A DNA stretch of 64,000 nucleotides from Thermanaerothrix daxensis (GTDB lineage Bacteria > Chloroflexota > Anaerolineae > Anaerolineales > Anaerolineaceae), in NCBI RefSeq assembly GCF_001306145.1, contig NZ_LGKO01000006.1:1-64000 (forward strand), in the 5' to 3' direction. Below are positions 38,846 to 55,020 of the stretch, piece by piece; positions within the stretch are counted from its first letter, which is position 1, and each line of letters begins with the position of its first letter. The position numbers and the translations under genes were made by a program. The notes under the pieces are model-generated. The model made no database searches, was not told the DNA's origin, and saw only the letters and a list, made by a program, of their open reading frames with translations.

Positions 38846-38932
38846 TCACTCCGAAGAACGTAACCCGAGCAACGTGCATCCCAGGAACAAGATGCCCACC
38901 AACGCAACCACCGCATATACGATGAACGCCAT
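38846..38932 (-). CDS. 28-residue single-helix membrane microprotein
   Basis: The ATG at 38932 follows GGAAGGAGGAAG, the strongest type of ribosome binding site in the window. The frame encodes MAFIVYAVVALVGILFLG, then CTLLGLRSSE. Almost the whole peptide is one membrane helix; the C-terminus is short and charged. It resembles in size and form the small membrane subunits and regulators found in respiratory or transport complexes, but I recognise no family. A minus-strand TACAAT at 39037-39032 is a possible -10 box, which would give a leader of about 95 bases, and a hairpin lies downstream. The ribosome binding site, isolated position and terminator argue for a real gene. Confidence 0.55.
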   Translation of the reverse strand: MAFIVYAVVALVGILFLGCTLLGLRSSE

Positions 38933-39428: not shown

Positions 39429-40583
39429 GTGAGCGACGAACCTGTTTGTACCCCGACCCCGGTTCGACCCTTCCGCCTACCCACCTGGCTGCCCATCCTG
39501 TTCGTGCTGGCCGCGTGGGGCTTCAGCCGCTGCGCACCCCTGCCTACGCCCACCACCCTCTCTCCCGCACCGGCCGCCTCGCTGATCCTGCTGGATTGGG
39601 AGGACGATGTCCCCCCCGAGATCCTCCAGGGCTTCACCGCCGAAACCGGCATCCCGGTCGAACTGCGCCACTACTACACCGTTGAAGAGGCCCGCCAGCG
39701 CCTGCTCGAGGGCGAGCCCTGCGATCTGGCCATCATCTCCAACGAGCAGGTACCCGCCCTGATCCGGGCCGAGCGTCTGCTCCCGCTTGACCTGACCCGG
39801 GTGCCCAATTTCCGCTACATTGCGCCGGCTTTCCGCGACCTGGTGATTGACCCCGGCAACCGCTACAGCGTGCCCTACTCCTGGGGCACCACCGGCCTGG
39901 TGTACCGCCCCGAGCGCGTTCCCCAGCCTCCGCAACGCTGGGCCGACCTGTGGGAGCCGGCCTACGGCGGGCGCATTTTCCTCTGGGATGACCCACGAAC
40001 GGTCATCGGCCTCACCCTCAAAGCCCTGGGCTACTCGGCCAACACCGCCGACCTGCAGGCCCTTCAGATTGCCGCGCTCAAGTTGCGCCAGTTAGCGGCC
40101 CTCCCGCCCGTCCCTTACCAGCCAGAGGCGCTCGGTGAAGCCCTGCGCCAGGAGCAGGCCTGGGTAGCCGTGGCCTGGGTGGGGGATTACATCCTTGCCC
40201 GCCAGGCCCTGCCCGACCTGGTCTATGCCCTGCCGGCCGAGGGCACCCTGCTGTGGATGGAGCACTACGTCATTCCCCGCGGCGCCCGCTACCCCGAAGC
40301 CGCCTTGCGCCTGCTGAATTACCTCCTGCGCCCCGAGATCAGCGCGCAGATCACCACCCGCAGTCTGTGGGCCACGGCCAACGAGGCCTCGTGGTCACAG
40401 GTGCACCTGGAACCCGAGCTCCAGGCGCTGATCTTCCCGCCTGCCGAGGCGCTCAGCAACGCCGAACTGACCCTGCCGCTTAGTCCCGAAGCCGAAATGA
40501 CGTATAATCAAATCTGGGAGCAGTTCCTCCGCGATCGCTCCACCTCTGCCCCCACCCCCTCTGCCTCGCCGGCGCCCCGATGA
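39429..40583 (+). CDS. PotD-like extracytoplasmic solute-binding protein
   Basis: This 384-residue protein has an N-terminal hydrophobic helix (about 19-34) ending in SRC, so it is either a lipoprotein with an atypical lipobox or membrane-anchored. The rest matches family 1 or polyamine-type binding proteins: LILLDWEDDVPPEILQGFTAETG, CDLAIISNEQVPALI, SVPYSWGTTGLVYR (the conserved PYxWGTxG segment of PotD-like proteins) and PEAALRLLNYLL. No permease or ATPase genes follow. Instead its stop codon overlaps the start of a membrane diguanylate cyclase (ATGA), so it may act as a sensory rather than a transport receptor. It starts with GTG and has a weak ribosome binding site. The ligand is unknown. 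Confidence 0.82.
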   Translation: MSDEPVCTPTPVRPFRLPTWLPILFVLAAWGFSRCAPLPTPTTLSPAPAASLILLDWEDDVPPEILQGFTAETGIPVELRHYYTVEEARQRLLEGEPCDLAIISNEQVPALIRAERLLPLDLTRVPNFRYIAPAFRDLVIDPGNRYSVPYSWGTTGLVYRPERVPQPPQRWADLWEPAYGGRIFLWDDPRTVIGLTLKALGYSANTADLQALQIAALKLRQLAALPPVPYQPEALGEALRQEQAWVAVAWVGDYILARQALPDLVYALPAEGTLLWMEHYVIPRGARYPEAALRLLNYLLRPEISAQITTRSLWATANEASWSQVHLEPELQALIFPPAEALSNAELTLPLSPEAEMTYNQIWEQFLRDRSTSAPTPSASPAPR

Positions 40584-43500
40584 AATCCACCCCGCCTCCC
40601 CCGCCGATCCCGGCCCGCTCCCCCTCCCTGCGCCGCACCTTTCAAAGCCTGCTGCGCGGTTTAATCCTGCTCACCCTGGGCTTCGTCCTGGCCATGACGG
40701 CCGGCCTCATCTACCGGGCCGAATCCCGCGACTGGCAGCAGCGCCAGGCCGAGGTGACCCACAATCTGGGCCTGCGCATCCGGGCGTTTCTGGAGCAGAC
40801 CACCAATCACCTACAGGCTTTTGCCCTGATCGGCATAGATGAGGCCACCCGGCATCCGCAGCAGGCCCAGCGCCTGTTCGATCTTTACCCGGTCTTCGAC
40901 CGAGTACAGGTCTTCACCCCCGACGGCACGTTGGAAGCCACCTTGAGCCGGGAAGAAGTGCCCGCCCTGGGCCTGATCACCCTGCCCCAGGCGCGCTGGC
41001 TGGCCGAGGCGCGGGCAGGGCGCACCTACATTGGCCCGTTTCAGATCTCCCCCCAGGGCCGGCCTTACCTGCTCCTGGCCACCCCCACCCGCACCGGGCA
41101 GGTCGTGATTGCGCAGGTCTCGCTCGAGCCCCTGTGGGAGATGACGCGCACCACCGCCCTGGGCCGCAGCGGGGTGGTTTACCTGGTCGAGCGCAGCGGG
41201 CACATCCTGGCCCATCCCGATCCTCAGGTGGTGCTCGGCAATACGACCCTGCCGGCAGAGGTTCTCCCCTACCTTACGGATCTTACAGCCCCAATGCACT
41301 TTGATTTCGCCACCGGGCTCAGCGGCGGCTGGGTGGAGCGCACCCTTGCCCCCGTCCCCGCCACCGACTGGGTGCTCGTGGCCGAAACAAACGAGGCAGA
41401 AGCACACGCCACCAGCCTGCTCAGCCTGGGCATTCTGGGTGGCGGGGTACTGCTCCTGGCCGTGCTCCTCTCCCTGGGGGCCGATGCGCACCTGCGCCGC
41501 CAGGTGCTGGCCCCCCTGGAGCAGTTGCGTCAGGGAGCGCTGGCGCTCAGCGCCGGGCACCTGGCGCACCGCCTGAACCTCCAACGCCCGGAGGAACTGC
41601 GCCAGGTGGCACAGGCTTTTAACACCATGGCCCAGACCCTGCAGAGCCAGCAAGCCGCCCTCACCCGCCAGACCGAAGCCCTGACCCGGTTGTACCAGCT
41701 GAGCCTGCTCCTCAACGCCAGCCGCGACCTGGAAACCCTCTGCAACCACACCCTGGATAGTCTCTACGCCCTTTTCCCCTTCATCCGCGCGGCCTACATC
41801 TTCATGCGCGATGCCGCCGGGGGGCTGGTGCTGGTGGCCTCACGCCAGGCCCCCAACACTGCCTCTACCCCCTCCTCCCCGGACGCTCTCCCCCCCACCG
41901 CCCCCAACCCCCAGCGCTGGCTGAGCGGCACCATCCCCCAGGTGTATGTGGAAGGCCCGCGCGCGCTGATCGGATTGCGCGGGCGGGATGACCTGCTGGG
42001 CCTGCTGCGCGTGGAAGCCGCCGCGCCCGAGCAATGGGGCGAGGACGAACAGCGCTGGCTGGCCATGCTGGCCGACCAACTGGCCGCAGCCGTGCAGACG
42101 CTGCGCCTGCAGGAAGCCCTGCAGAAAGAACTGCACGAGCGCCGGCGGGCCGAAGAAGCCCTGCATCAGGCCCACGCCGACCTGGAAGAACGCATCCACC
42201 AGCGCACCCAGGAACTGCGCCGTCTCAACCGCCAACTGATGCTGGCCCTCAACGAGCAAAAATTCGCCGAAGAGCGGCTGCAGCGCCAGAAACAGCAACT
42301 GGAAGCCCTGCGCCAGGCCACCCTTGAACTTACCGCACACCTCGACCTTTCCACCCTGCTGAACTCCCTGGTGCGCCGCGCGGTTGAGATCGTAGATGCC
42401 GACGCCGGGGGCTTCTACCTCTACGAGCCCGAGCACGATCACCTCGTGCGCGTGGTCAGCCTGGGAGAGCATGCGCTCCCGCTGGGGCTGATCATCCGCC
42501 GCGGCGAGAGCCTCTCCGGGCGCGTGCTACAGAGCCGCGAGCCCCTGCTCGTCTCCGACTACCGCCACTGGGAAGGCCGCCTGACCAACCTGCCTCAGGA
42601 ATCCGAAGTCTACGCCGTGATCGGCCTGCCGGTGCAGTGGGGGGAGGAGTTCCTGGGCGTGCTCAACGTGGCCACCTACCGCGAGCGTTCCTTCAGCCAG
42701 GAGGAGGTCAACCTGCTCAACCTGTTCGCCTTGCAGGCCGCCATTGCCATCCGCAACACGCGGATTTTGGAAAACGAGCGCCGCCAGCGCCGTCGTGCCG
42801 AGGCCCTGGCCAAAGTCAACGCCGCCCTAACCTCTTCACTGGAACTCAAGCCCCTGCTCCAGCGCGTGCTGGAAGCCGCCACCGAGGCCATCCCCGCCGC
42901 CGACCGTGGCAGTGTGCTGCTGCTGCTGGATGCCGAACGTGGGGAATTGGTCATCGAAGCCCTCTACGGCTACACCGACCCGCGCATCTACGAAATGCGC
43001 TTTCCGCGTGAGGCGGGCTACGCCGCCAAAGCCCTGCGTGAGGAACGGCCCATCCTGATCCCCGATGCCCGCGCGGATGACGAGGTGCGCTACGACGGTG
43101 AGATTGCCGAAGTGCGCGCCGTGCGTTCGGCCATCGCCGCCCCCATGTTCCTGCGTGACCATCCGGTCGGGGTCATCACTCTGGATTGCACTCGCGAGAC
43201 CCATGCCTTCACCGCTGAGGACCTGGCCCTACTCAAGGCCTTTGCCGATCAGGCCGCCCTGGCCATCCACAACGCGCGCCTTTACGAGCGCGAGAAGCAC
43301 CTGGCCATCACCGACGACCTGACCGGCATTTACAACCGCCGCTACGCCTTGCAACTGGCCGAACGTGAGATCGAGCGCGCCCGGCGCTACCGCCGCTCCC
43401 TGGCCATGATCCTGGCCGACATTGACCACTTTAAACGCGTCAACGATACCTACGGCCACCTGGTGGGCGATGAGGTCCTGCACGAACTGGCCCAGCGCTG

Positions 43501-43807
43501 TCAGCAGCAACTGCGCGATTTCGACATCCTGGGGCGCTACGGCGGCGAGGAGTTTTTAATCGTGCTCCCCGAAGCCAATGCCGAGGCCGCGTTGGGGGTG
43601 GCCGAGCGCTTGCGCCGGGCCATTGCCGAGACGCCCTTCAACGGCGGAGATCGTTCCATCCAGATCACTCTCTCGCTCGGTGTGGTGGCCTTCACCCAGG
43701 ACCACCCCGACCTGAACGAATGGCTGAAGCAGGTGGATGCCGCGCTCTACCAGGCCAAAGAGCGCGGGCGCAACCAGGCCGTCTTGTGGAAGGGCCCTCT
43801 CGAATGA
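40580..43807 (+). CDS. membrane sensor diguanylate cyclase (Cache-HAMP-GAF-GGDEF)
   Basis: This 1075-residue protein makes c-di-GMP. A first membrane helix (about 25-46) is followed by an extracytoplasmic Cache-like domain (about 50-275) with the strand [24 protein letters not shown], then a second helix (about 280-300) and a HAMP segment. Three GAF-type regions follow at about 370-510, 590-735 and 755-895, separated by a coiled coil at about 510-590. The GGDEF domain (about 905-1070) shows [35 protein letters not shown] and the active site GGEEF. RDFD stands five residues before GGEEF, which is the RxxD inhibitory site, so product feedback is expected. Start and stop overlap the neighbouring genes by four bases each. 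Confidence 0.92.
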   Translation: [1075 protein letters not shown]

Positions 43808-45189
43808 TCCCCATCCTGCGCAATCAGCCCCACACCCTGCAGGTGCTGGGCGAGGCACGCGCCCAGGCCGTTGGCCGCATCCTGGGCGCGGCACTGCAGG
43901 CGGTCGAGCCGGCCCACGCTGTGCGGCAACACCTGGCGCGCCGCGGGGAGGTGCTCCTCGCCGCAGGCCGGACCTACGACCTGCGCCGTCTGCGCCATCT
44001 CTGGCTCATCGGCGCGGGCAAAGCCGCCGTGCCCATGGCTTGGGCCGTCGCCGAGGTGCTGGGCGAGGATCTCAGCGGCGGGCTGATCATCACCAAGTAC
44101 GGCCACGGCGGCCCGCTGGCCGCCTCCCTGCGCGCGCGGGGGGTGGTCACCCATGAGGCCGGTCATCCCCTGCCCGATGCTCACGGCGTGGCGGCCACGC
44201 ACACCCTGCTCGAGCACCTGGCCACCTGCAACGACCAGGACCTGGTCCTCCTCGTCCTCTCCGGCGGAGGGTCGGCCCTACTCACCGCCCCCGCCGAGGG
44301 CATCTCCCTGGAAGACCTGCAGCACCTGACCTCCCTGCTCCTGGCCTGCGGCGCCAGCATCCATGAGATCAACACCCTGCGCAAGCACCTGGATCGGGTC
44401 AAAGGCGGTGGGTTGGCCCGCCTGGCCGCCCCCGCTCACCTGCTGGTGCTCGTTCTCTCCGATGTGGTGGGCGATCCCCTCGATGTGATCGCCTCCGGCC
44501 CGGCCGTTCCCGATCCCACCACCTACGCCGATGCCCTGGCCATCCTGGAGCGCTACGGGCTCACCCCTCAGGTGCCTCCGGCCATTCTGGCGCACCTGCA
44601 ACGCGGTGCCGCCGGCGCCATCCCCGAAACCCCCAAACCCGGCGATCCGCTCTTTGAGCGCGTGCACACCCTCATCGTGGGCAACAACTACCAGGCCGCC
44701 CAGGCGGCGCTGACCCAGGCACGTTCCGAGGGCTTTCACGCCCTGCTCCTGACCACCCACCTGCAGGGCGAAGCCAGCCAGGCCGGGCGCTTCCTGGCCG
44801 CGCTGGCCCGTCAGGTGGCTACCACCGGCGAACCCCTGCCCCGCCCCGCTTGCCTGATCCTGGGCGGCGAAACCACGGTCACCCTGCGCGGCGATGGGCG
44901 CGGCGGGCGCAATCAGGAAGTGGCACTGGGTGCCGTTGCCGACCTGGCCGGCCTGGAGGAGGTTCTCCTGCTCACCCTGGCCACCGATGGCGGCGATGGA
45001 CCCACCGAAGCCGCAGGGGCCGTGGTCAGCGGAGCCAGCCTGGCCCGCGCCCAGGCGCTGGGGCTCAATCCCCACGCCTACCTGGCGCGCAACGACTCGC
45101 ACACCTTCTTTCATGCCCTGGACGACCTGCTCATCACCGGCCCTACCCAGACCAACGTCAACGACCTGGCTTTCCTGTTCGCCTTCTGA
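43804..45189 (+). CDS. glycerate 2-kinase (GckA/TtuD type)
   Basis: This 461-residue kinase of the DUF4147/MOFRL family phosphorylates D-glycerate at position 2. The N-terminal part has LWLIGAGKAAVPMAWAVAEVLG, the glycine-rich LVLLVLSGGGSALLTAPAEGISL and the segment IHEINTLRKHLDRVKGGGLARLA. The C-terminal MOFRL domain shows CLILGGETTVTLRGDGRGGRNQE and LATDGGDGPTEAAGAVV, with NDSHTFFHALDDLLITGPTQTNVND at the end. The ATG at 43804 overlaps the cyclase stop (ATGA); a longer frame upstream runs inside the cyclase gene and is not real. Why a glycerate kinase is coupled to a cyclase is unclear. Confidence 0.93.
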   Translation: MIPILRNQPHTLQVLGEARAQAVGRILGAALQAVEPAHAVRQHLARRGEVLLAAGRTYDLRRLRHLWLIGAGKAAVPMAWAVAEVLGEDLSGGLIITKYGHGGPLAASLRARGVVTHEAGHPLPDAHGVAATHTLLEHLATCNDQDLVLLVLSGGGSALLTAPAEGISLEDLQHLTSLLLACGASIHEINTLRKHLDRVKGGGLARLAAPAHLLVLVLSDVVGDPLDVIASGPAVPDPTTYADALAILERYGLTPQVPPAILAHLQRGAAGAIPETPKPGDPLFERVHTLIVGNNYQAAQAALTQARSEGFHALLLTTHLQGEASQAGRFLAALARQVATTGEPLPRPACLILGGETTVTLRGDGRGGRNQEVALGAVADLAGLEEVLLLTLATDGGDGPTEAAGAVVSGASLARAQALGLNPHAYLARNDSHTFFHALDDLLITGPTQTNVNDLAFLFAF

Positions 45190-45272
45190 ACCCCTTTCGA
45201 CCAACGGACAGCCCACCTGGCACGGGACTTGCATGCATGATACCCGGAGACACCACTTACCCCGGGGCGTGC

Positions 45273-45881
45273 ATGAACAGCCAAACCATTGATCGCTGGG
45301 TCAACTACTGGGTGCGCCTGATGGAGCAGGAAATTCAGGAAACTTCCTGGCACAGTCAACTGGCCAGCCGTCTGGCGCTGCGCCTGGGGCGCAAGTTTGG
45401 GCTGCAGGGAGAAGCCCTGCGCCACCTGCGCCGCGGCGCCCTGCTCCACGACATTGGCAAACTGGCCATCCCGCGCGCAATTCTCTACAAACCCGGCCCG
45501 CTCAATGCGGAGGAGTGGCGCCTGATGCGCCGCCATCCGCTTTACGCCTACGACTTTTTCGCCCCCCTGCCCGAACTCCATCCGGCGCTGGAAGTGGCTC
45601 TCTACCACCACGAAAAGTGGGACGGCAGTGGCTACCCCTTCGGCCTGGCCGGCGAGGCCATCCCCCTGGTCGCCCGCATCTTCGCCATTGTGGATGTATG
45701 GAATGCCCTGCGCTCCGACCGGCCCTACCGCCGCGCCTGGGGCGAAGCGGAGACACGCGCCTACCTCCTGGCCAACCGCGGCCGCCAGTTTGACCCCCAG
45801 GTGGTGGATGCCTTTTGGGAGATCCTCCAGCGCAACGGACGGGATCTAACCCCTACCCTGGCCCCCCAGCCCGCCGATTAA
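45273..45881 (+). CDS. stand-alone HD-GYP domain protein
   Basis: This 202-residue protein is little more than an HD-GYP phosphodiesterase domain, the class that hydrolyses c-di-GMP to GMP. The metal and signature motifs are intact: a His in SWHSQLASRL, ALLHDIGKLAIP, RRHPLYAYDFF, YHHEKWDGSGYP and VARIFAIVDVWNALRSDRPYR. There is no sensor or membrane domain. The first 15 residues could include an extra 12 if ATG 45237 is used; neither start has a good ribosome binding site. It follows the glycerate kinase by about 80 bases, in the same direction as the cyclase. Its domain is very like the C-terminus of the 1158-residue sensor at 51271-54747. Confidence 0.88.
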   Translation: MNSQTIDRWVNYWVRLMEQEIQETSWHSQLASRLALRLGRKFGLQGEALRHLRRGALLHDIGKLAIPRAILYKPGPLNAEEWRLMRRHPLYAYDFFAPLPELHPALEVALYHHEKWDGSGYPFGLAGEAIPLVARIFAIVDVWNALRSDRPYRRAWGEAETRAYLLANRGRQFDPQVVDAFWEILQRNGRDLTPTLAPQPAD

Positions 45882-51270: not shown

Positions 51271-54200
51271 TCACTCCTCCACCTTCAGCACCTCGCGCAG
51301 AAACACCTCTACGATGTGCGGATCGAAATGCTTGCCTGCCTGTTCCCGCAGGTAGGCAATTGCCTGCTCCCGCGTCCACGCCGGGCGGTACGGCCGATCG
51401 CTCGTCAGCGCATCCCACACATCCACCACCGCGAAAATGCGCGCCGCCAGCGGGATCTCCTCCCCCTTCAGCCCCCGTGGGTAACCGCTCCCATCCCACT
51501 TTTCATGGTGGCAGTAGGGGATCTCCAACGCCGGCCGCAGGTACTCGATCCGCGAGAGCATTTCGTAGGCAAACACCGGGTGCTGCCGCATGAGCACCCA
51601 CTCCTCCTCGCTCAGCGGGCCGGCCTTGTGCAGGATGCTGTCGGGCACCCCCATCTTGCCGATATCGTGCAGCAGAGCCCCGCGCCGCAGGTGCACCAAC
51701 ACCTCGCCTTTCAGCCCCAGCGCACGCGCCAGGCGCAGGGTCAGTTCGGTCATCCGCTGGGTGTGCCCCTCGGTTTCCCGATCCCGCAGGTCCAGTGCAT
51801 AGGACCAGCCCTCAATCGTGGCATCGTAAGCGCGTAAAAGGGCCTGGGTTGTATGCTGGAGATCCGAGAGCAGAGCCGCATTGTGGATGGCAATGCCCAG
51901 TTGACCGGCCAGCACCTCCAGAAAATCGCGCCACTCGGCATCCTGCTCCACGGCCCGGCGGTGGAAGAGTTCGAGCACCCCTTTCACCTGGCCCTCGGCC
52001 AGCAGCGGCACCGCGTAGTACGTCACAAACTCCTCGGCCGCAAATTCGGGCGAGTTGAAAAAAACCTCCGGTTGGGCGCGCAAGTCGGGGACGTGCACCA
52101 CGCGCCGCTCCTGCGCCGCTCGCCCGGCCAGGCTCTTCCCCCAGGGCAGGTGGGTGTGCTGCAACGCCGCGGTGCGAAAGCCCCGCCCCAGGAAGTAATC
52201 CAGGGTGTTGGTGCGGGCGTCGTACAGCAGCACACAGGTCGCATCCACCCCCAGTTGGTCCATGATCTCATCCAGCGCGATCTCCAGCGTCAGGCGCAGA
52301 TCCAGGCTGGCGGTGATCGCCATATCAATCCGCCGCAGGGACTGCACCCGCTCCAGGCGTCGCTGGGCCGCCTCATACAGACGGGCATTTTCCAGGGCCG
52401 CTGCGGCCTGGTGTGCAAATGTCTGCAGTGTGCTCAGATGCTCGGCGTTGAAAAAGTCGGGGCGGTCGCTGTAAAGCGCCAGCGCACCGATGATTTGACC
52501 GCGGTGGATCAACGGCAGGGCCGCATTACTGCGCAACCCCAGCCCCAGCGCCGTCTCGCGCCAGGGCGCAAAGCGCGGGTCGGTGGCGTGATCGGGGGTG
52601 ATCTGCGGCAGCCCACTGCGGATGGCCCGCCCCACCGGACCCCGGCCTTCCGGAGTGTCGTCCCAGCGCACCCGAATACTGCGCGGGTACGGATGATCCG
52701 GTGGAAACTGGCTGAGCAACCGCACACGCCCATCCGGCTCCGCCACCCCCACCCAGGCCACTGCCAACCCGAAGAGTTCCACGCCGGCACGCGCAATCGT
52801 CTCGCCGATGGCCTGCGGTTCCAGGCTGGTCGCCAGGCGCTGGGCCGCCATGTACAGCGCGCGCAGGGTGTCCAGTTGCTGCTGGATTTGCACCTCGGCG
52901 GCTTTGCGGGCGGTGATGTCCTGGGTGTAACCCACCAGGCGCACGGGATAGCCGTGCTCATCGCGCTCGATCTCGACCTGCTCTTCCAGCCAGCGCGTTT
53001 CGCCATCCACCACCACGCGGAATTCCAGGTGGTAGGGCTGCCCCTCCAACGCCGCCTGCCAGGCGACCATCACCCGCTCACGATCCTCCGGGTGCACCCG
53101 GCTCATGAACTGTGCATCGGAGGGGTCAACCTCCGCCGGGTTCAGCCCCAACAGGCGGTACATCTCCCCCGACCAGATCAGGCGGTTGGCGGCCAGGTCA
53201 AACGACCAGGACCCCAAATGCGCAATTGCCTGTGCACGTTCCAGCGCCTGGTGCGCCTGGCGCAGGGCCGCCTCGGCTTCCTTGCGCGCGGTGATGTCGC
53301 GGCCAATCCCCTCAATGGCAATCAGGTTGCCGGCGGCATCGTAAACCGGTACATTGCGCTGCTCGAGCCAGACAATGTGACCGTCTTTATGCACCCAGCG
53401 CAGTTCCACGGGTTCGCCCGGCACAATTTCGCCGCGGGCAATCTTCTCCAAAAGGGGGCGGTCCTCGGGATGGATCAACTTGACGCCCAGGTTGGGATCG
53501 CGGTAGTGCTCTTCGGGGGTGTAGCCGACAATGGACCTCGCTGCCGGGTTGACGTATTCAAAGCCCGGCGTTGGGCGCAGGCGGTAGCGGTAGATGATAT
53601 CCGGGGCGTTCTCGGCCAGGCGGCGGAAGCGCGCCTCGCTCTCGCGCAGGGCCGCCTCAGCCTGCTGACGCAGGGCCTCACGCTGCTCCAGCGCCTCGGC
53701 CAGCGCATCCGAGGCCACCCCGATCTGCCCGATCTCATCCCCACCGGCCGCAAAGCCGGTGCGGGCGCTCAGATCCCCCGCGGTCATCCGCTGCATGGCC
53801 TCCAGGATGCGCCGCACCCGCCGTGTCACCATCTGCTCGCCCCACCCCCAGGCCAGGAACAGGCTGAACAGAATCGCCCCCGCCATGAGCCCCAGGAACG
53901 TGCCTAGCGTGCGGTTCACCGCGGCATAAGCCACCTCCACCGGGATGCCCACAAACAGATAGCCCCAGCGCAGGCCGGCATGTTCCATCGGGACGTAGCC
54001 GTACAGCCGCGGCACCTCATCCAGGCCCACCTCTTCGATCACCCCGGGCCCCGCGTGCGCCAGGGCGGCCTGCATCAAGCCGCGCTCTCGCATCGAACGC
54101 CCAAACCACAGGCTCTCCTGCGGGTAGCGCGCCAGAACGGTCCCCTGGTAATCTACCAGCGTGAAAGTCGTGCCGGGCGGCATTTCCAGGTTAGCAAAGG

Positions 54201-54747
54201 TGCGGCTGAGCCAGCGCAGGTCCAGACCCAGAAACACTACCCCCTGCAAGCCGGCCGGGCCGGTTTTGAGCGGGAACGCCAGCGGCAAAACCGGTAGCCC
54301 GCTCACGCGCCCCACCACGTAAGGGCCCACCGTAAAGACACCCGTCTCTACCGCCGTTTGAAACCATTCGCGATCCGCGTAGTTCACTGCCTGGCCGACA
54401 GGCTGCGAGGCACACACCAGGTTGCCCTGCTCATCCACCACCCCCACCAGGGTATAGAGGGGGTGCGCGTAGTAGAGATCGCGCAGCAGTGCATTGCAGC
54501 GCGGCCGATCCAGGGTGCTCACGGCTTCCATGCGTGCCAGCAGGAGCAGGGTCTCATGCCCCTGGGTGATCAGAGCGTTCTGCGAGGTGGCGGCCAGCTG
54601 CGCCAGGCTGAGCGCAGTGGTGCTGGTTCGGGCAAGCGCCTCCCCCCGTAACTGCGCCGCCGCAACCAGCGCCAGGCCGATGAGCGGCAACGCCCCCAAT
54701 AAGACCAGGGCCATCAGACGCACCCGCAGACTCTTAAACCGCCACAT
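51271..54747 (-). CDS. membrane sensor HD-GYP phosphodiesterase (dCache-HAMP-PAS-GAF)
   Basis: This 1158-residue protein is a probable c-di-GMP phosphodiesterase with a large sensory part. Two membrane helices (about 11-32 and 280-302) flank an extracytoplasmic dCache domain (CNALLRDLYYAHPLYTLVGVVDEQGNLV, YADREWFQTAVETG). A HAMP domain (about 303-360) leads to two PAS domains (about 375-500 and 510-625), shown by their PAC ends IEGIGRDITARKEAE and VGYTQDITARKAAE. Two GAF domains follow (about 635-800 and 810-960). The C-terminal HD-GYP domain has EGHTQRM, ALLHDIGKMGVP, RQHPVFAYEML, CHHEKWDGSGYPRGL and VVDVWDALTSDRPYR, all intact. The gene stands alone between the dead Rieske gene and tRNA-Ser genes. 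Confidence 0.93.
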   Translation of the reverse strand: MWRFKSLRVRLMALVLLGALPLIGLALVAAAQLRGEALARTSTTALSLAQLAATSQNALITQGHETLLLLARMEAVSTLDRPRCNALLRDLYYAHPLYTLVGVVDEQGNLVCASQPVGQAVNYADREWFQTAVETGVFTVGPYVVGRVSGLPVLPLAFPLKTGPAGLQGVVFLGLDLRWLSRTFANLEMPPGTTFTLVDYQGTVLARYPQESLWFGRSMRERGLMQAALAHAGPGVIEEVGLDEVPRLYGYVPMEHAGLRWGYLFVGIPVEVAYAAVNRTLGTFLGLMAGAILFSLFLAWGWGEQMVTRRVRRILEAMQRMTAGDLSARTGFAAGGDEIGQIGVASDALAEALEQREALRQQAEAALRESEARFRRLAENAPDIIYRYRLRPTPGFEYVNPAARSIVGYTPEEHYRDPNLGVKLIHPEDRPLLEKIARGEIVPGEPVELRWVHKDGHIVWLEQRNVPVYDAAGNLIAIEGIGRDITARKEAEAALRQAHQALERAQAIAHLGSWSFDLAANRLIWSGEMYRLLGLNPAEVDPSDAQFMSRVHPEDRERVMVAWQAALEGQPYHLEFRVVVDGETRWLEEQVEIERDEHGYPVRLVGYTQDITARKAAEVQIQQQLDTLRALYMAAQRLATSLEPQAIGETIARAGVELFGLAVAWVGVAEPDGRVRLLSQFPPDHPYPRSIRVRWDDTPEGRGPVGRAIRSGLPQITPDHATDPRFAPWRETALGLGLRSNAALPLIHRGQIIGALALYSDRPDFFNAEHLSTLQTFAHQAAAALENARLYEAAQRRLERVQSLRRIDMAITASLDLRLTLEIALDEIMDQLGVDATCVLLYDARTNTLDYFLGRGFRTAALQHTHLPWGKSLAGRAAQERRVVHVPDLRAQPEVFFNSPEFAAEEFVTYYAVPLLAEGQVKGVLELFHRRAVEQDAEWRDFLEVLAGQLGIAIHNAALLSDLQHTTQALLRAYDATIEGWSYALDLRDRETEGHTQRMTELTLRLARALGLKGEVLVHLRRGALLHDIGKMGVPDSILHKAGPLSEEEWVLMRQHPVFAYEMLSRIEYLRPALEIPYCHHEKWDGSGYPRGLKGEEIPLAARIFAVVDVWDALTSDRPYRPAWTREQAIAYLREQAGKHFDPHIVEVFLREVLKVEE

Positions 54748-55020
54748 CTGCGCTCTTCCCCCGGTTTAGGCCCACCCCGCCTCCGCCGGGCCCGTTCGCT
54801 TGGGCCGTTCCATGCACTTCGCTCACCCCATCTCCATGCATCCACCGTTAATGAGAGTCGTGGTCGCGCTGACCAGACAAATAAGTAGATCGGCTTGATT
54901 ATTGTGCCACACGAAAGCCCGCCCGGCAAGTCCCCTCGGCTTACAATCGCCTGACTCTTCATCCCCCGGCACGCTTGGATTAAAAGCACCCGCCCGCCTG
55001 CACAGCGGGCGTGCGCGAGG

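What the first reader, a model, noticed from the sequence alone, without database searches (positions are those of the whole stretch)
39429..45881. Binding protein, diguanylate cyclase, glycerate kinase and HD-GYP protein in one coupled gene set
The PotD-like binding protein, the Cache/GAF/GGDEF cyclase and glycerate 2-kinase overlap by four bases each (ATGA), and an HD-GYP protein follows within about 80 bases. No transporter genes are present. A binding protein that presents a ligand to the cyclase's outer domain would make a c-di-GMP sensor of a little-described type, with synthesis and breakdown encoded together. The link to glycerate kinase could reveal the ligand or the metabolic branch.
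Basis: partly seen in the sequence, partly recalled or inferred. Interest (0 to 1): 0.65.

Follow-up and report, generated by a model that had tools for sequence, protein, structure and literature searches.

The report
Binding-protein-fed c-di-GMP sensor pair
A bacterium carries a small-molecule binding protein encoded gene to gene with a membrane sensor that makes the signal c-di-GMP; the same binding-protein-plus-sensor pair recurs in other bacteria with different signalling outputs, so it looks like a reusable sensing module rather than a nutrient transporter, while the two other genes beside it look like chance neighbours.

Summary
The four genes are real and arranged as described: PotD-like binding protein (SBP), dCache-HAMP-GAF-GGDEF cyclase, glycerate kinase, bare HD-GYP protein. 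Only the first two form a conserved unit. Of 79 loci fetched by SBP sequence, the 34 closest have a dCache sensor within 300 nt in 25 and PotB/PotC in 0 (in the 15 of them not already seen in earlier searches: 12 and 0); the other 45 have a sensor in 0 and PotB/PotC in 34. In a tree of 61 SBPs the sensor-linked ones fall in one clade of 28 (support 100/100; 19 sensor-linked, 9 neither, 0 ABC-linked). The dCache receptor swaps outputs: of 33 scanned, 25 histidine kinases, 3 GGDEF, 2 GGDEF-EAL, 1 SpoIIE, 2 unrecognised. The genome shows no PotB/PotC orthologue. Glycerate kinase is beside the pair in no other locus examined; HD-GYP-domain proteins lie near it in two, in other arrangements. Best reading: an SBP-fed receptor working like Vibrio NspS-MbaA, probably for a cationic amine, in a distinct subfamily. 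Ligand and docking are inferred, not shown.

The parts
39429..40583 (+). PotD-like solute-binding protein, 384 aa, N-terminal hydrophobic segment, no canonical lipobox; sensor-linked subfamily
   Evidence: tree; AlphaFold model pLDDT 90.8, nearest solved folds are polyamine-binding proteins
40580..43807 (+). Transmembrane diguanylate cyclase, 1075 aa: dCache_1, HAMP, GAF domains, GGDEF
   Evidence: GGEEF motif and upstream RxxD read by eye in the translation
40727..41383 (+). dCache_1 ectodomain (residues 50-268), the presumed docking site for the binding protein
   Evidence: Pfam 53.8 bits, cut-off 45; model pLDDT 86.8, most of the nearest solved folds are dCache domains
41492..41644 (+). HAMP (residues 305-355)
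43304..43777 (+). GGDEF output domain (residues 909-1066)
   Evidence: 167 bits
43804..45189 (+). Glycerate 2-kinase (DUF4147 + MOFRL); overlaps the cyclase by 4 bp but the linkage is not conserved; probable bystander
45276..45881 (+). Bare HD-GYP protein (alternative start 45240), HDxGK and HHExxDGxGYP motifs read by eye; this linkage not found elsewhere

Best explanation
The SBP and the cyclase are a two-gene receptor. The SBP, held outside the cell by its N-terminal segment, binds a small cationic amine (polyamine-like), closes, and docks on the dCache ectodomain of the cyclase; the shape change passes through the transmembrane helices and HAMP and sets the activity of the GGDEF domain, so c-di-GMP reports the ligand. 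It is a signalling device and not part of an uptake system. The same SBP + dCache + HAMP input is joined to histidine kinase, GGDEF, GGDEF-EAL or SpoIIE outputs in relatives. Glycerate kinase and HD-GYP are neighbours that probably share the transcript but are not a conserved part. Shown: gene order and its conservation, the separate SBP clade, absence of permeases in the loci read, domain make-up, predicted folds. Inferred: docking, ligand class, anchoring, direction of the response.
For: Loci picked by SBP sequence, not by context: 25 of 34 close-relative loci have a same-strand dCache sensor within 300 nt and 0 of 34 hold PotB/PotC; the other 45 loci of the scan: 0 of 45 and 34 of 45; scores of the two sets do not overlap (at least 452 against at most 342 bits). 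SBP tree: clade of 28, 100/100, no ABC-linked member. Reverse test: of the 23 best dCache matches in 396 class genomes, 17 have the SBP directly upstream (one, G349, as a piece cut by the contig start), 3 are cut by a contig end, 3 have the SBP elsewhere in the genome. Outputs swap on one input (33 sensors): GGDEF in three separate places of the ectodomain tree, once as sister of a kinase at 100/99. Own genome: the SBP finds only itself and E. coli PotB/PotC find only remote permeases (51.2 and 46.7 bits). Pocket: PotD W34, W255 and an acid at 257 kept in 28 of 28; more acids over 15 positions than in ABC-linked SBPs. Mechanism by analogy with NspS-MbaA (PMC8967002, passages).
Against: No complex was modelled and no binding measured. 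PMC11113362 (passages) shows that SBPs of this Pfam family encoded near sensor kinases preferred GABA or 5-aminovalerate (one bound spermidine weakly, KD 160 uM; another bound neither spermidine nor putrescine) and did not bind the one sensor domain that could be tested; so neighbourhood does not prove docking and PotD likeness does not fix the ligand. 9 of 34 loci lack an adjacent sensor; only L183 and L199 stop close after the SBP, while L176, L184, L185, L186, L195, L197 and L202 do not. One genome with a family ectodomain, G368 (contig cut), shows no clade SBP (best E 1.1e-41). HD-GYP-domain proteins near the pair in L181/L113 and L200 leave some room for a c-di-GMP breakdown partner. The window's SBP and ectodomain are long-branched, and its pocket departs from PotD (Y37 to D, E171 to T, Y293 to W). 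The pocket list was recalled and one position (232) added; 14 of 15 letters were as expected in E. coli PotD. Whether the ectodomain binds a ligand itself was not tested.
Confidence: 0.78

Rival explanations
1. The SBP is an orphan transport protein that feeds a permease encoded elsewhere; its place before a cyclase is incidental.
For: The fold and many pocket residues are those of transport PotD; 5 of 28 clade members stand beside neither a sensor nor a contig end.
Against: No PotB/PotC orthologue found in the genome, 97% complete; 0 of 34 close relatives near PotB/PotC while 25 of 34 adjoin a dCache sensor.
Confidence: 0.08
2. All four genes are one functional operon: signal input, c-di-GMP synthesis, c-di-GMP breakdown and a glycerate branch tied to the ligand.
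For: Two ATGA overlaps and a short gap; G035 has an ORF with a weak GGDEF match directly before glycerate kinase; a GGDEF + HD-GYP protein lies upstream of the SBP in L113/L181 and an HD-GYP gene about 2 kb after the sensor in L200.
Against: 0 of 29 other glycerate kinase loci carry the SBP or dCache sensor in their flanks; no glycerate kinase match in the other SBP-sensor loci; the Anaerolinea pair stands without both genes.
Confidence: 0.07
3. The dCache domain senses its own ligand directly and the SBP only scavenges or modulates, as a second input.
For: Many of the best solved matches of the ectodomain are dCache domains that bind amino acids directly, including a cyclase with proline (7k5n).
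Against: Tight co-occurrence of this ectodomain subfamily with this SBP subfamily.
Confidence: 0.15

Closest known systems
NspS-MbaA (Vibrio cholerae, Sinorhizobium meliloti)
   Same: PotD-like SBP gene directly before, and overlapping, a gene for a HAMP-bearing transmembrane c-di-GMP enzyme (PMC9993111 section 17; PMC8967002 and PMC8079147 passages).
   Different: MbaA has SGDEF plus an EAL-type domain and switches between synthesis and breakdown; the window's receptor has GGEEF and no EAL. The family here is mostly joined to histidine kinases and lies mainly in Chloroflexota. Orthology with NspS was not tested: no NspS sequence was at hand.
SBP_bac_8 proteins near the AgtS and AruS kinases of Pseudomonas aeruginosa
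   Same: SBP of the same Pfam family encoded near a sensor kinase (PMC11113362, passages).
   Different: The AgtS and AruS sensor domains are SBP_bac_3 and CHASE5, not dCache; preferred ligands found were GABA and 5-aminovalerate.
PotD of PotABCD polyamine transporters
   Same: Fold and part of the pocket.
   Different: Different clade, no permeases beside it.
ScrB-ScrC (Vibrio parahaemolyticus), XylFII-LytS, TorT-TorS, LuxP-LuxQ
   Same: A separate binding protein acts on a membrane receptor (recalled; some appear in reference-list passages of PMC9602780).
   Different: Other SBP and sensor families (recalled).

Membership tests
NspS-MbaA type | PotD-like SBP gene directly before or overlapping the receptor gene | tested here: met
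   4-bp overlap; 25 of 34 loci
NspS-MbaA type | Receptor with periplasmic domain, HAMP and GGDEF | tested here: met
NspS-MbaA type | EAL domain in the receptor | tested here: not met
   no EAL in the window's cyclase; present in relatives L109 and L113
NspS-MbaA type | SGDEF variant motif | tested here: not met
   GGEEF in the translation; SGDEF reported in PMC9993111
NspS-MbaA type | Ligand contacts W41, Y233, D236, W261, D263 of NspS | tested here: inconclusive
   positions taken as equivalent hold W, W, D, W, E in the window, but the mapping to NspS is by position through PotD, without an NspS sequence
NspS-MbaA type | Loaded SBP binds the receptor | not testable with these tools
   no complex prediction, no bench
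NspS-MbaA type | Common descent with NspS | not tested
   no NspS sequence; of 303 genomes in the class of a Competibacteraceae MAG 5 match at E 1e-85 and only that MAG itself scores over 400 bits (best few candidates per genome scored)
PotABCD transporter component | PotB/PotC permease partners | tested here: not met
   none adjacent, none orthologous found in the genome
dCache_1 sensor | Pfam cut-off and fold | tested here: met
   53.8 bits against 45; fold matches
Diguanylate cyclase | GGDEF domain with GG(D/E)EF motif | tested here: met
   166.9 bits, GGEEF; activity not testable
Four-gene c-di-GMP / glycerate operon | Conserved linkage of glycerate kinase and HD-GYP with the pair | tested here: not met
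   HD-GYP-domain proteins near the pair only in L113/L181 and L200, arranged otherwise

The most novel reading that the evidence does not exclude
A single dedicated family of polyamine-reading receptors (acid-rich PotD-like SBP, sometimes two or three in tandem, plus one dCache-HAMP input) is used across Chloroflexota, Competibacteraceae and Desulfobulbaceae as an exchangeable front end for kinases, cyclases, cyclase-phosphodiesterases and a SpoIIE phosphatase, and its raised pocket acidity (about 1.6 to 2 times that of transport relatives) means that it reads highly charged, long-chain or branched polyamines.
Probability: 0.3. Interest if true: 0.68.

Novelty: new variant of a known kind. Interest (0 to 1): 0.52.

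Why it matters
SBP-fed receptors are thought to be widespread but few are characterised: PMC9602780 (passage) counts only about 10 characterised examples of SBPs activating sensor kinases, and PMC9993111 (section 17) found NspS-MbaA in under 1.4% of proteobacterial genomes. Here a whole SBP subfamily can be recognised from sequence as signalling rather than transport, with one input domain and interchangeable outputs. That makes ligand discovery, and the question of how a closed SBP drives a Cache domain, directly testable, and suggests that a 'spermidine/putrescine ABC transporter' label would mislead for this clade.

Tried and rejected
Glycerate kinase as a clue to the ligand: rejected; none of 29 other loci has the SBP or the dCache sensor in its flanks, and five read at 12-13 kb (G035, G022, G004, G030, G021) have differing neighbours. 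HD-GYP as conserved partner: not supported; homologues abound (36 of 41 genomes, 7 matches in this genome). Near misses told: in G022 an HD-GYP gene lies near glycerate kinase on the opposite strand with a gene between; HD-GYP-domain proteins lie near the pair in L113/L181 and L200.

Histidine degradation as a link (imidazolonepropionase-type gene two genes upstream in the window; a HutH-type lyase beside the SBP in L041/L184): followed, no other of the loci searched has either. RNA elements upstream: none at Rfam gathering thresholds; four tRNAs elsewhere in the window.

A lipoprotein anchor: a loose lipobox pattern occurs in 30 of 49 SBP ORFs of the family (some mechanical starts are too early and some misses carry a near-lipobox Cys); the window's own 'FSRC' does not fit, so its anchor stays open.

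Comparison with NspS itself: not reached; two searches sought relatives through the class of a Competibacteraceae genome. Literature: no listed title or abstract start described this SBP-dCache family; I read passages or sections of six of the listed papers (PMC8079147, PMC9993111, PMC11113362, PMC9602780, PMC8846402, PMC8967002), and absence is claimed for those searches only.

Rows dropped or limits before counts: SBP pieces under 250 aa and duplicates before the tree (61 rows kept); clade members L133 and L134 left out of alignment A3 (26 of 28 used); SBP matches of 180 bits or less, PotB/PotC matches of 120 or less and sensor matches of 30 or less were ignored; only the best 4-5 candidates per genome were scored; one search used one peptide pattern and kept the best 80 of 143 relatives; one search kept non-overlapping longest ORFs only.
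Full report
What is there. SBP 39429-40583, cyclase 40580-43807 and glycerate kinase 43804-45189 overlap by four bases each (ATGA), and a bare HD-GYP gene follows after 50 or 86 bases, depending on which in-frame ATG is used, ending at 45881. Pfam gives SBP_bac_8 for the first; dCache_1 (50-268), HAMP (305-355), GAF domains and GGDEF (909-1066) for the second; DUF4147 and MOFRL for the third; HD_5 for the fourth. The cyclase carries GGEEF with an RxxD motif before it, and the HD-GYP protein carries HDxGK and HHExxDGxGYP, as read by eye from the translations; activity is plausible but not tested.

Is the SBP a transporter part? Among 41 related genomes many of the PotD-like proteins sit beside PotB/PotC, but the one in G021 sits directly before a 752-aa dCache-HAMP-GGDEF protein. 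There is no glycerate kinase or HD-GYP gene beside that pair. In the window's own genome the SBP finds only itself at E 0.001 although SBP_bac_8 has 13 matches, and E. coli PotC and PotB find only remote permeases (46.7 and 51.2 bits), whereas permeases beside ABC-linked PotD-like SBPs in other loci score about 130 to 290 bits.

Class-wide test. The dCache ectodomain (A1) and the SBP (A2) were searched in 396 genomes of the class, with the best 4-5 candidates per genome scored. The SBP scores break: 27 places score 278 bits or more, the next scores 232. Of the 27, 19 have a same-strand dCache sensor within 1500 nt; four lie at contig ends (one of these, G205:C342, is followed by a truncated sensor, seen as L201); four have none adjacent, of which G239 and G352 carry a sensor about 6.6 kb away on the same contig, G320 one on another contig, and G200 none found. 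None of the 27 has a PotB or PotC match in the stretches read. Conversely, of the 23 best ectodomain places (129 bits or more), 17 have the SBP directly upstream (G349 as a piece), 3 are cut by a contig end and 3 have the SBP elsewhere in the genome; of the three cut ones, G368 shows no clade SBP at all.

Tree. 61 SBPs were put in a maximum-likelihood tree. The sensor-linked ones lie in one clade of 28 rows, support 100/100, with 19 sensor-linked, 9 linked to neither and none linked to ABC genes; all 21 ABC-linked rows, E. coli PotD included, lie outside.

Scan by SBP sequence. A scan of one genome each for 84,980 species, with one peptide pattern drawn from the SBP alignment, gave 143 relatives, of which the best 80 (79 loci) were kept. 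They fall in two sets without overlap in score. High set, 34 loci: sensor within 300 nt on the same strand in 25, PotB/PotC in 0, tandem SBPs in 10. Low set, 45 loci: sensor in 0, PotB/PotC within 300 nt in 34. The gap between SBP and sensor in the 25 runs from -167 to 254 nt, in 15 of 25 within ten bases (mechanical start codons). Exceptions: L183 and L199 end close after the SBP; L176 has a sensor piece 960 nt away, L195 and L197 one 6.6 kb away; L184, L185, L186 and L202 have none in the stretch. The high set includes Competibacteraceae, Desulfobulbaceae and other proteobacterial MAGs besides Chloroflexota. In a phylum-wide search of 400 genomes, six genomes of one genus (g290 of family f82, some single-contig) carry it too, four with tandem SBPs; in the three read further (G532, G546, G474) a sensor follows. 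Many records are MAGs, so single taxon labels may be wrong; several assemblies agree for Competibacteraceae and Desulfobulbaceae.

Outputs. 33 sensors were scanned with Pfam; all 33 have dCache_1 and HAMP. Outputs: 25 histidine kinases (simple or hybrid; L200 by its ATPase domain alone), 3 GGDEF (window, Anaerolinea, L179), 2 GGDEF-EAL (L109, L113), 1 SpoIIE phosphatase (L119), 2 with no recognised output (L116, L132). Five of the 33 (L111, L117, L119, L125, L126) do not have the SBP gene directly beside them in the stretch read. In the ectodomain tree of 34 rows the GGDEF label needs three changes, forced by well-supported branches, and L179 (GGDEF) is sister to L178 (kinase) at 100/99 (some labels were carried over from the same contig under another locus id; the tool warned that the window's row and L132 are long branches, so the window's own place is unsure).

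Fold and pocket. The SBP model (41 sequences, pLDDT 90.8) is nearest to solved polyamine-binding proteins (4gl0, 4eqb, 1pot, 7xjm). The ectodomain model (26 sequences, pLDDT 86.8) is a dCache domain with flanking helices. At 15 pocket positions of E. coli PotD (list recalled, position 232 added; 14 of 15 letters as expected), W34, W255 and an acid at 257 are kept in 28 of 28 clade members; W34 is equally kept in the 20 ABC-linked SBPs, W255 in 14 of 20, an Asp at 257 in 16 of 20. Position 232 is Asp in 28 of 28, against Asp in 6 and Glu in 8 of 20. Acids at the 15 positions average 6.4 against 3.2 in the ABC-linked ones (Mann-Whitney p 4e-7, kinship not corrected for); four divergent ABC rows have none, and without them the ABC mean is 4.0 (my sum). 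A cationic, probably multiply charged, ligand is thus likely; which one is open. PMC11113362 (passages) is a warning: SBP_bac_8 proteins predicted to bind spermidine or putrescine preferred GABA or 5-aminovalerate, and no contact with the one testable kinase sensor domain was seen.

Glycerate kinase and HD-GYP. 33 of 41 relatives have a glycerate kinase match at E 1e-30. Of 29 other loci read with flanks of up to 1.5 kb none has the SBP or the dCache sensor beside it; one (G035) has an ORF with a weak GGDEF match before it and one (G022) has an HD-GYP gene nearby. No glycerate kinase match appears in the 36 class loci or the 85 further loci. The HD-GYP protein is one of 7 matches in the genome. 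HD-GYP-domain proteins do lie near the pair in two other places: a 953-aa GGDEF + HD-GYP protein upstream of the SBP in L113/L181 and a 372-aa one about 2 kb after the sensor in L200. Both window genes are best taken as local neighbours; co-transcription is likely from the spacing but would not make them part of the sensor.

How it most likely works. By analogy with NspS-MbaA, where the loaded, closed SBP binds the receptor and favours cyclase activity (PMC8967002, passages), a loaded SBP would dock on the dCache domain and turn the cyclase up or down. The direction cannot be told from sequence. The receptor lacks an EAL domain, so any fall in c-di-GMP must come from other enzymes. It works like NspS-MbaA; it is not filed as a member, because the EAL domain and SGDEF motif are absent and descent from NspS was not tested.

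Verdict. The pair is real, conserved and well separated from transport proteins; the four-gene story is not supported. It is a new variant of a known kind: SBP-fed receptors, here as a recognisable subfamily with swappable outputs.

Noticed in passing
window 51271-54765 (-): A second c-di-GMP protein in the window: 1164 aa, dCache_1-HAMP-PAS-GAF-HD-GYP.
   Followed up: partly
L138:5116-6129, L139:4549-6614, L135:7833-8678: Other dCache sensors of the class have a different binding protein beside them (PF04392 ABC_sub_bind, twice in tandem in L139; PBP_like_2 in L135), so the SBP-dCache arrangement may be general.
   Followed up: partly
L171, L172, L173, L174, L183, L188, L189, L193, L200, L202, L269: Two or three SBPs of the family stand in tandem, in nine of these eleven loci with a sensor beside them; this could widen the ligand range of one receptor.
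   Followed up: partly
L041:6456-9161 (also L184): An SBP of the clade stands 105 bp after a HutH-type lyase, without a sensor; the window has an imidazolonepropionase-type gene two genes upstream. No other locus searched shows this.
   Followed up: yes
L117:6481-9804 and L131:1956-5300: Near the SBP in two genomes of one family stands a large protein with similar start (by eye); in L131 it is TLC ATP/ADP transporter + HEAT + cNMP-binding.
   Followed up: no
L272:4843-9102: A lower-scoring SBP (272 bits) directly before a 1055-aa protein with a weak dCache match (44 bits): possible separate recruitment.
   Followed up: no
L096 and L102 (SBP flanks): PotD-like SBPs of one family (f25) lie beside an ORF whose start looks like an aldehyde dehydrogenase (by eye), with no PotB/PotC in the 1.5-kb flanks.
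   Followed up: no
window 38846-38932 (-): A 28-aa hydrophobic ORF preceded by a Shine-Dalgarno-like stretch (read by eye).
   Followed up: no
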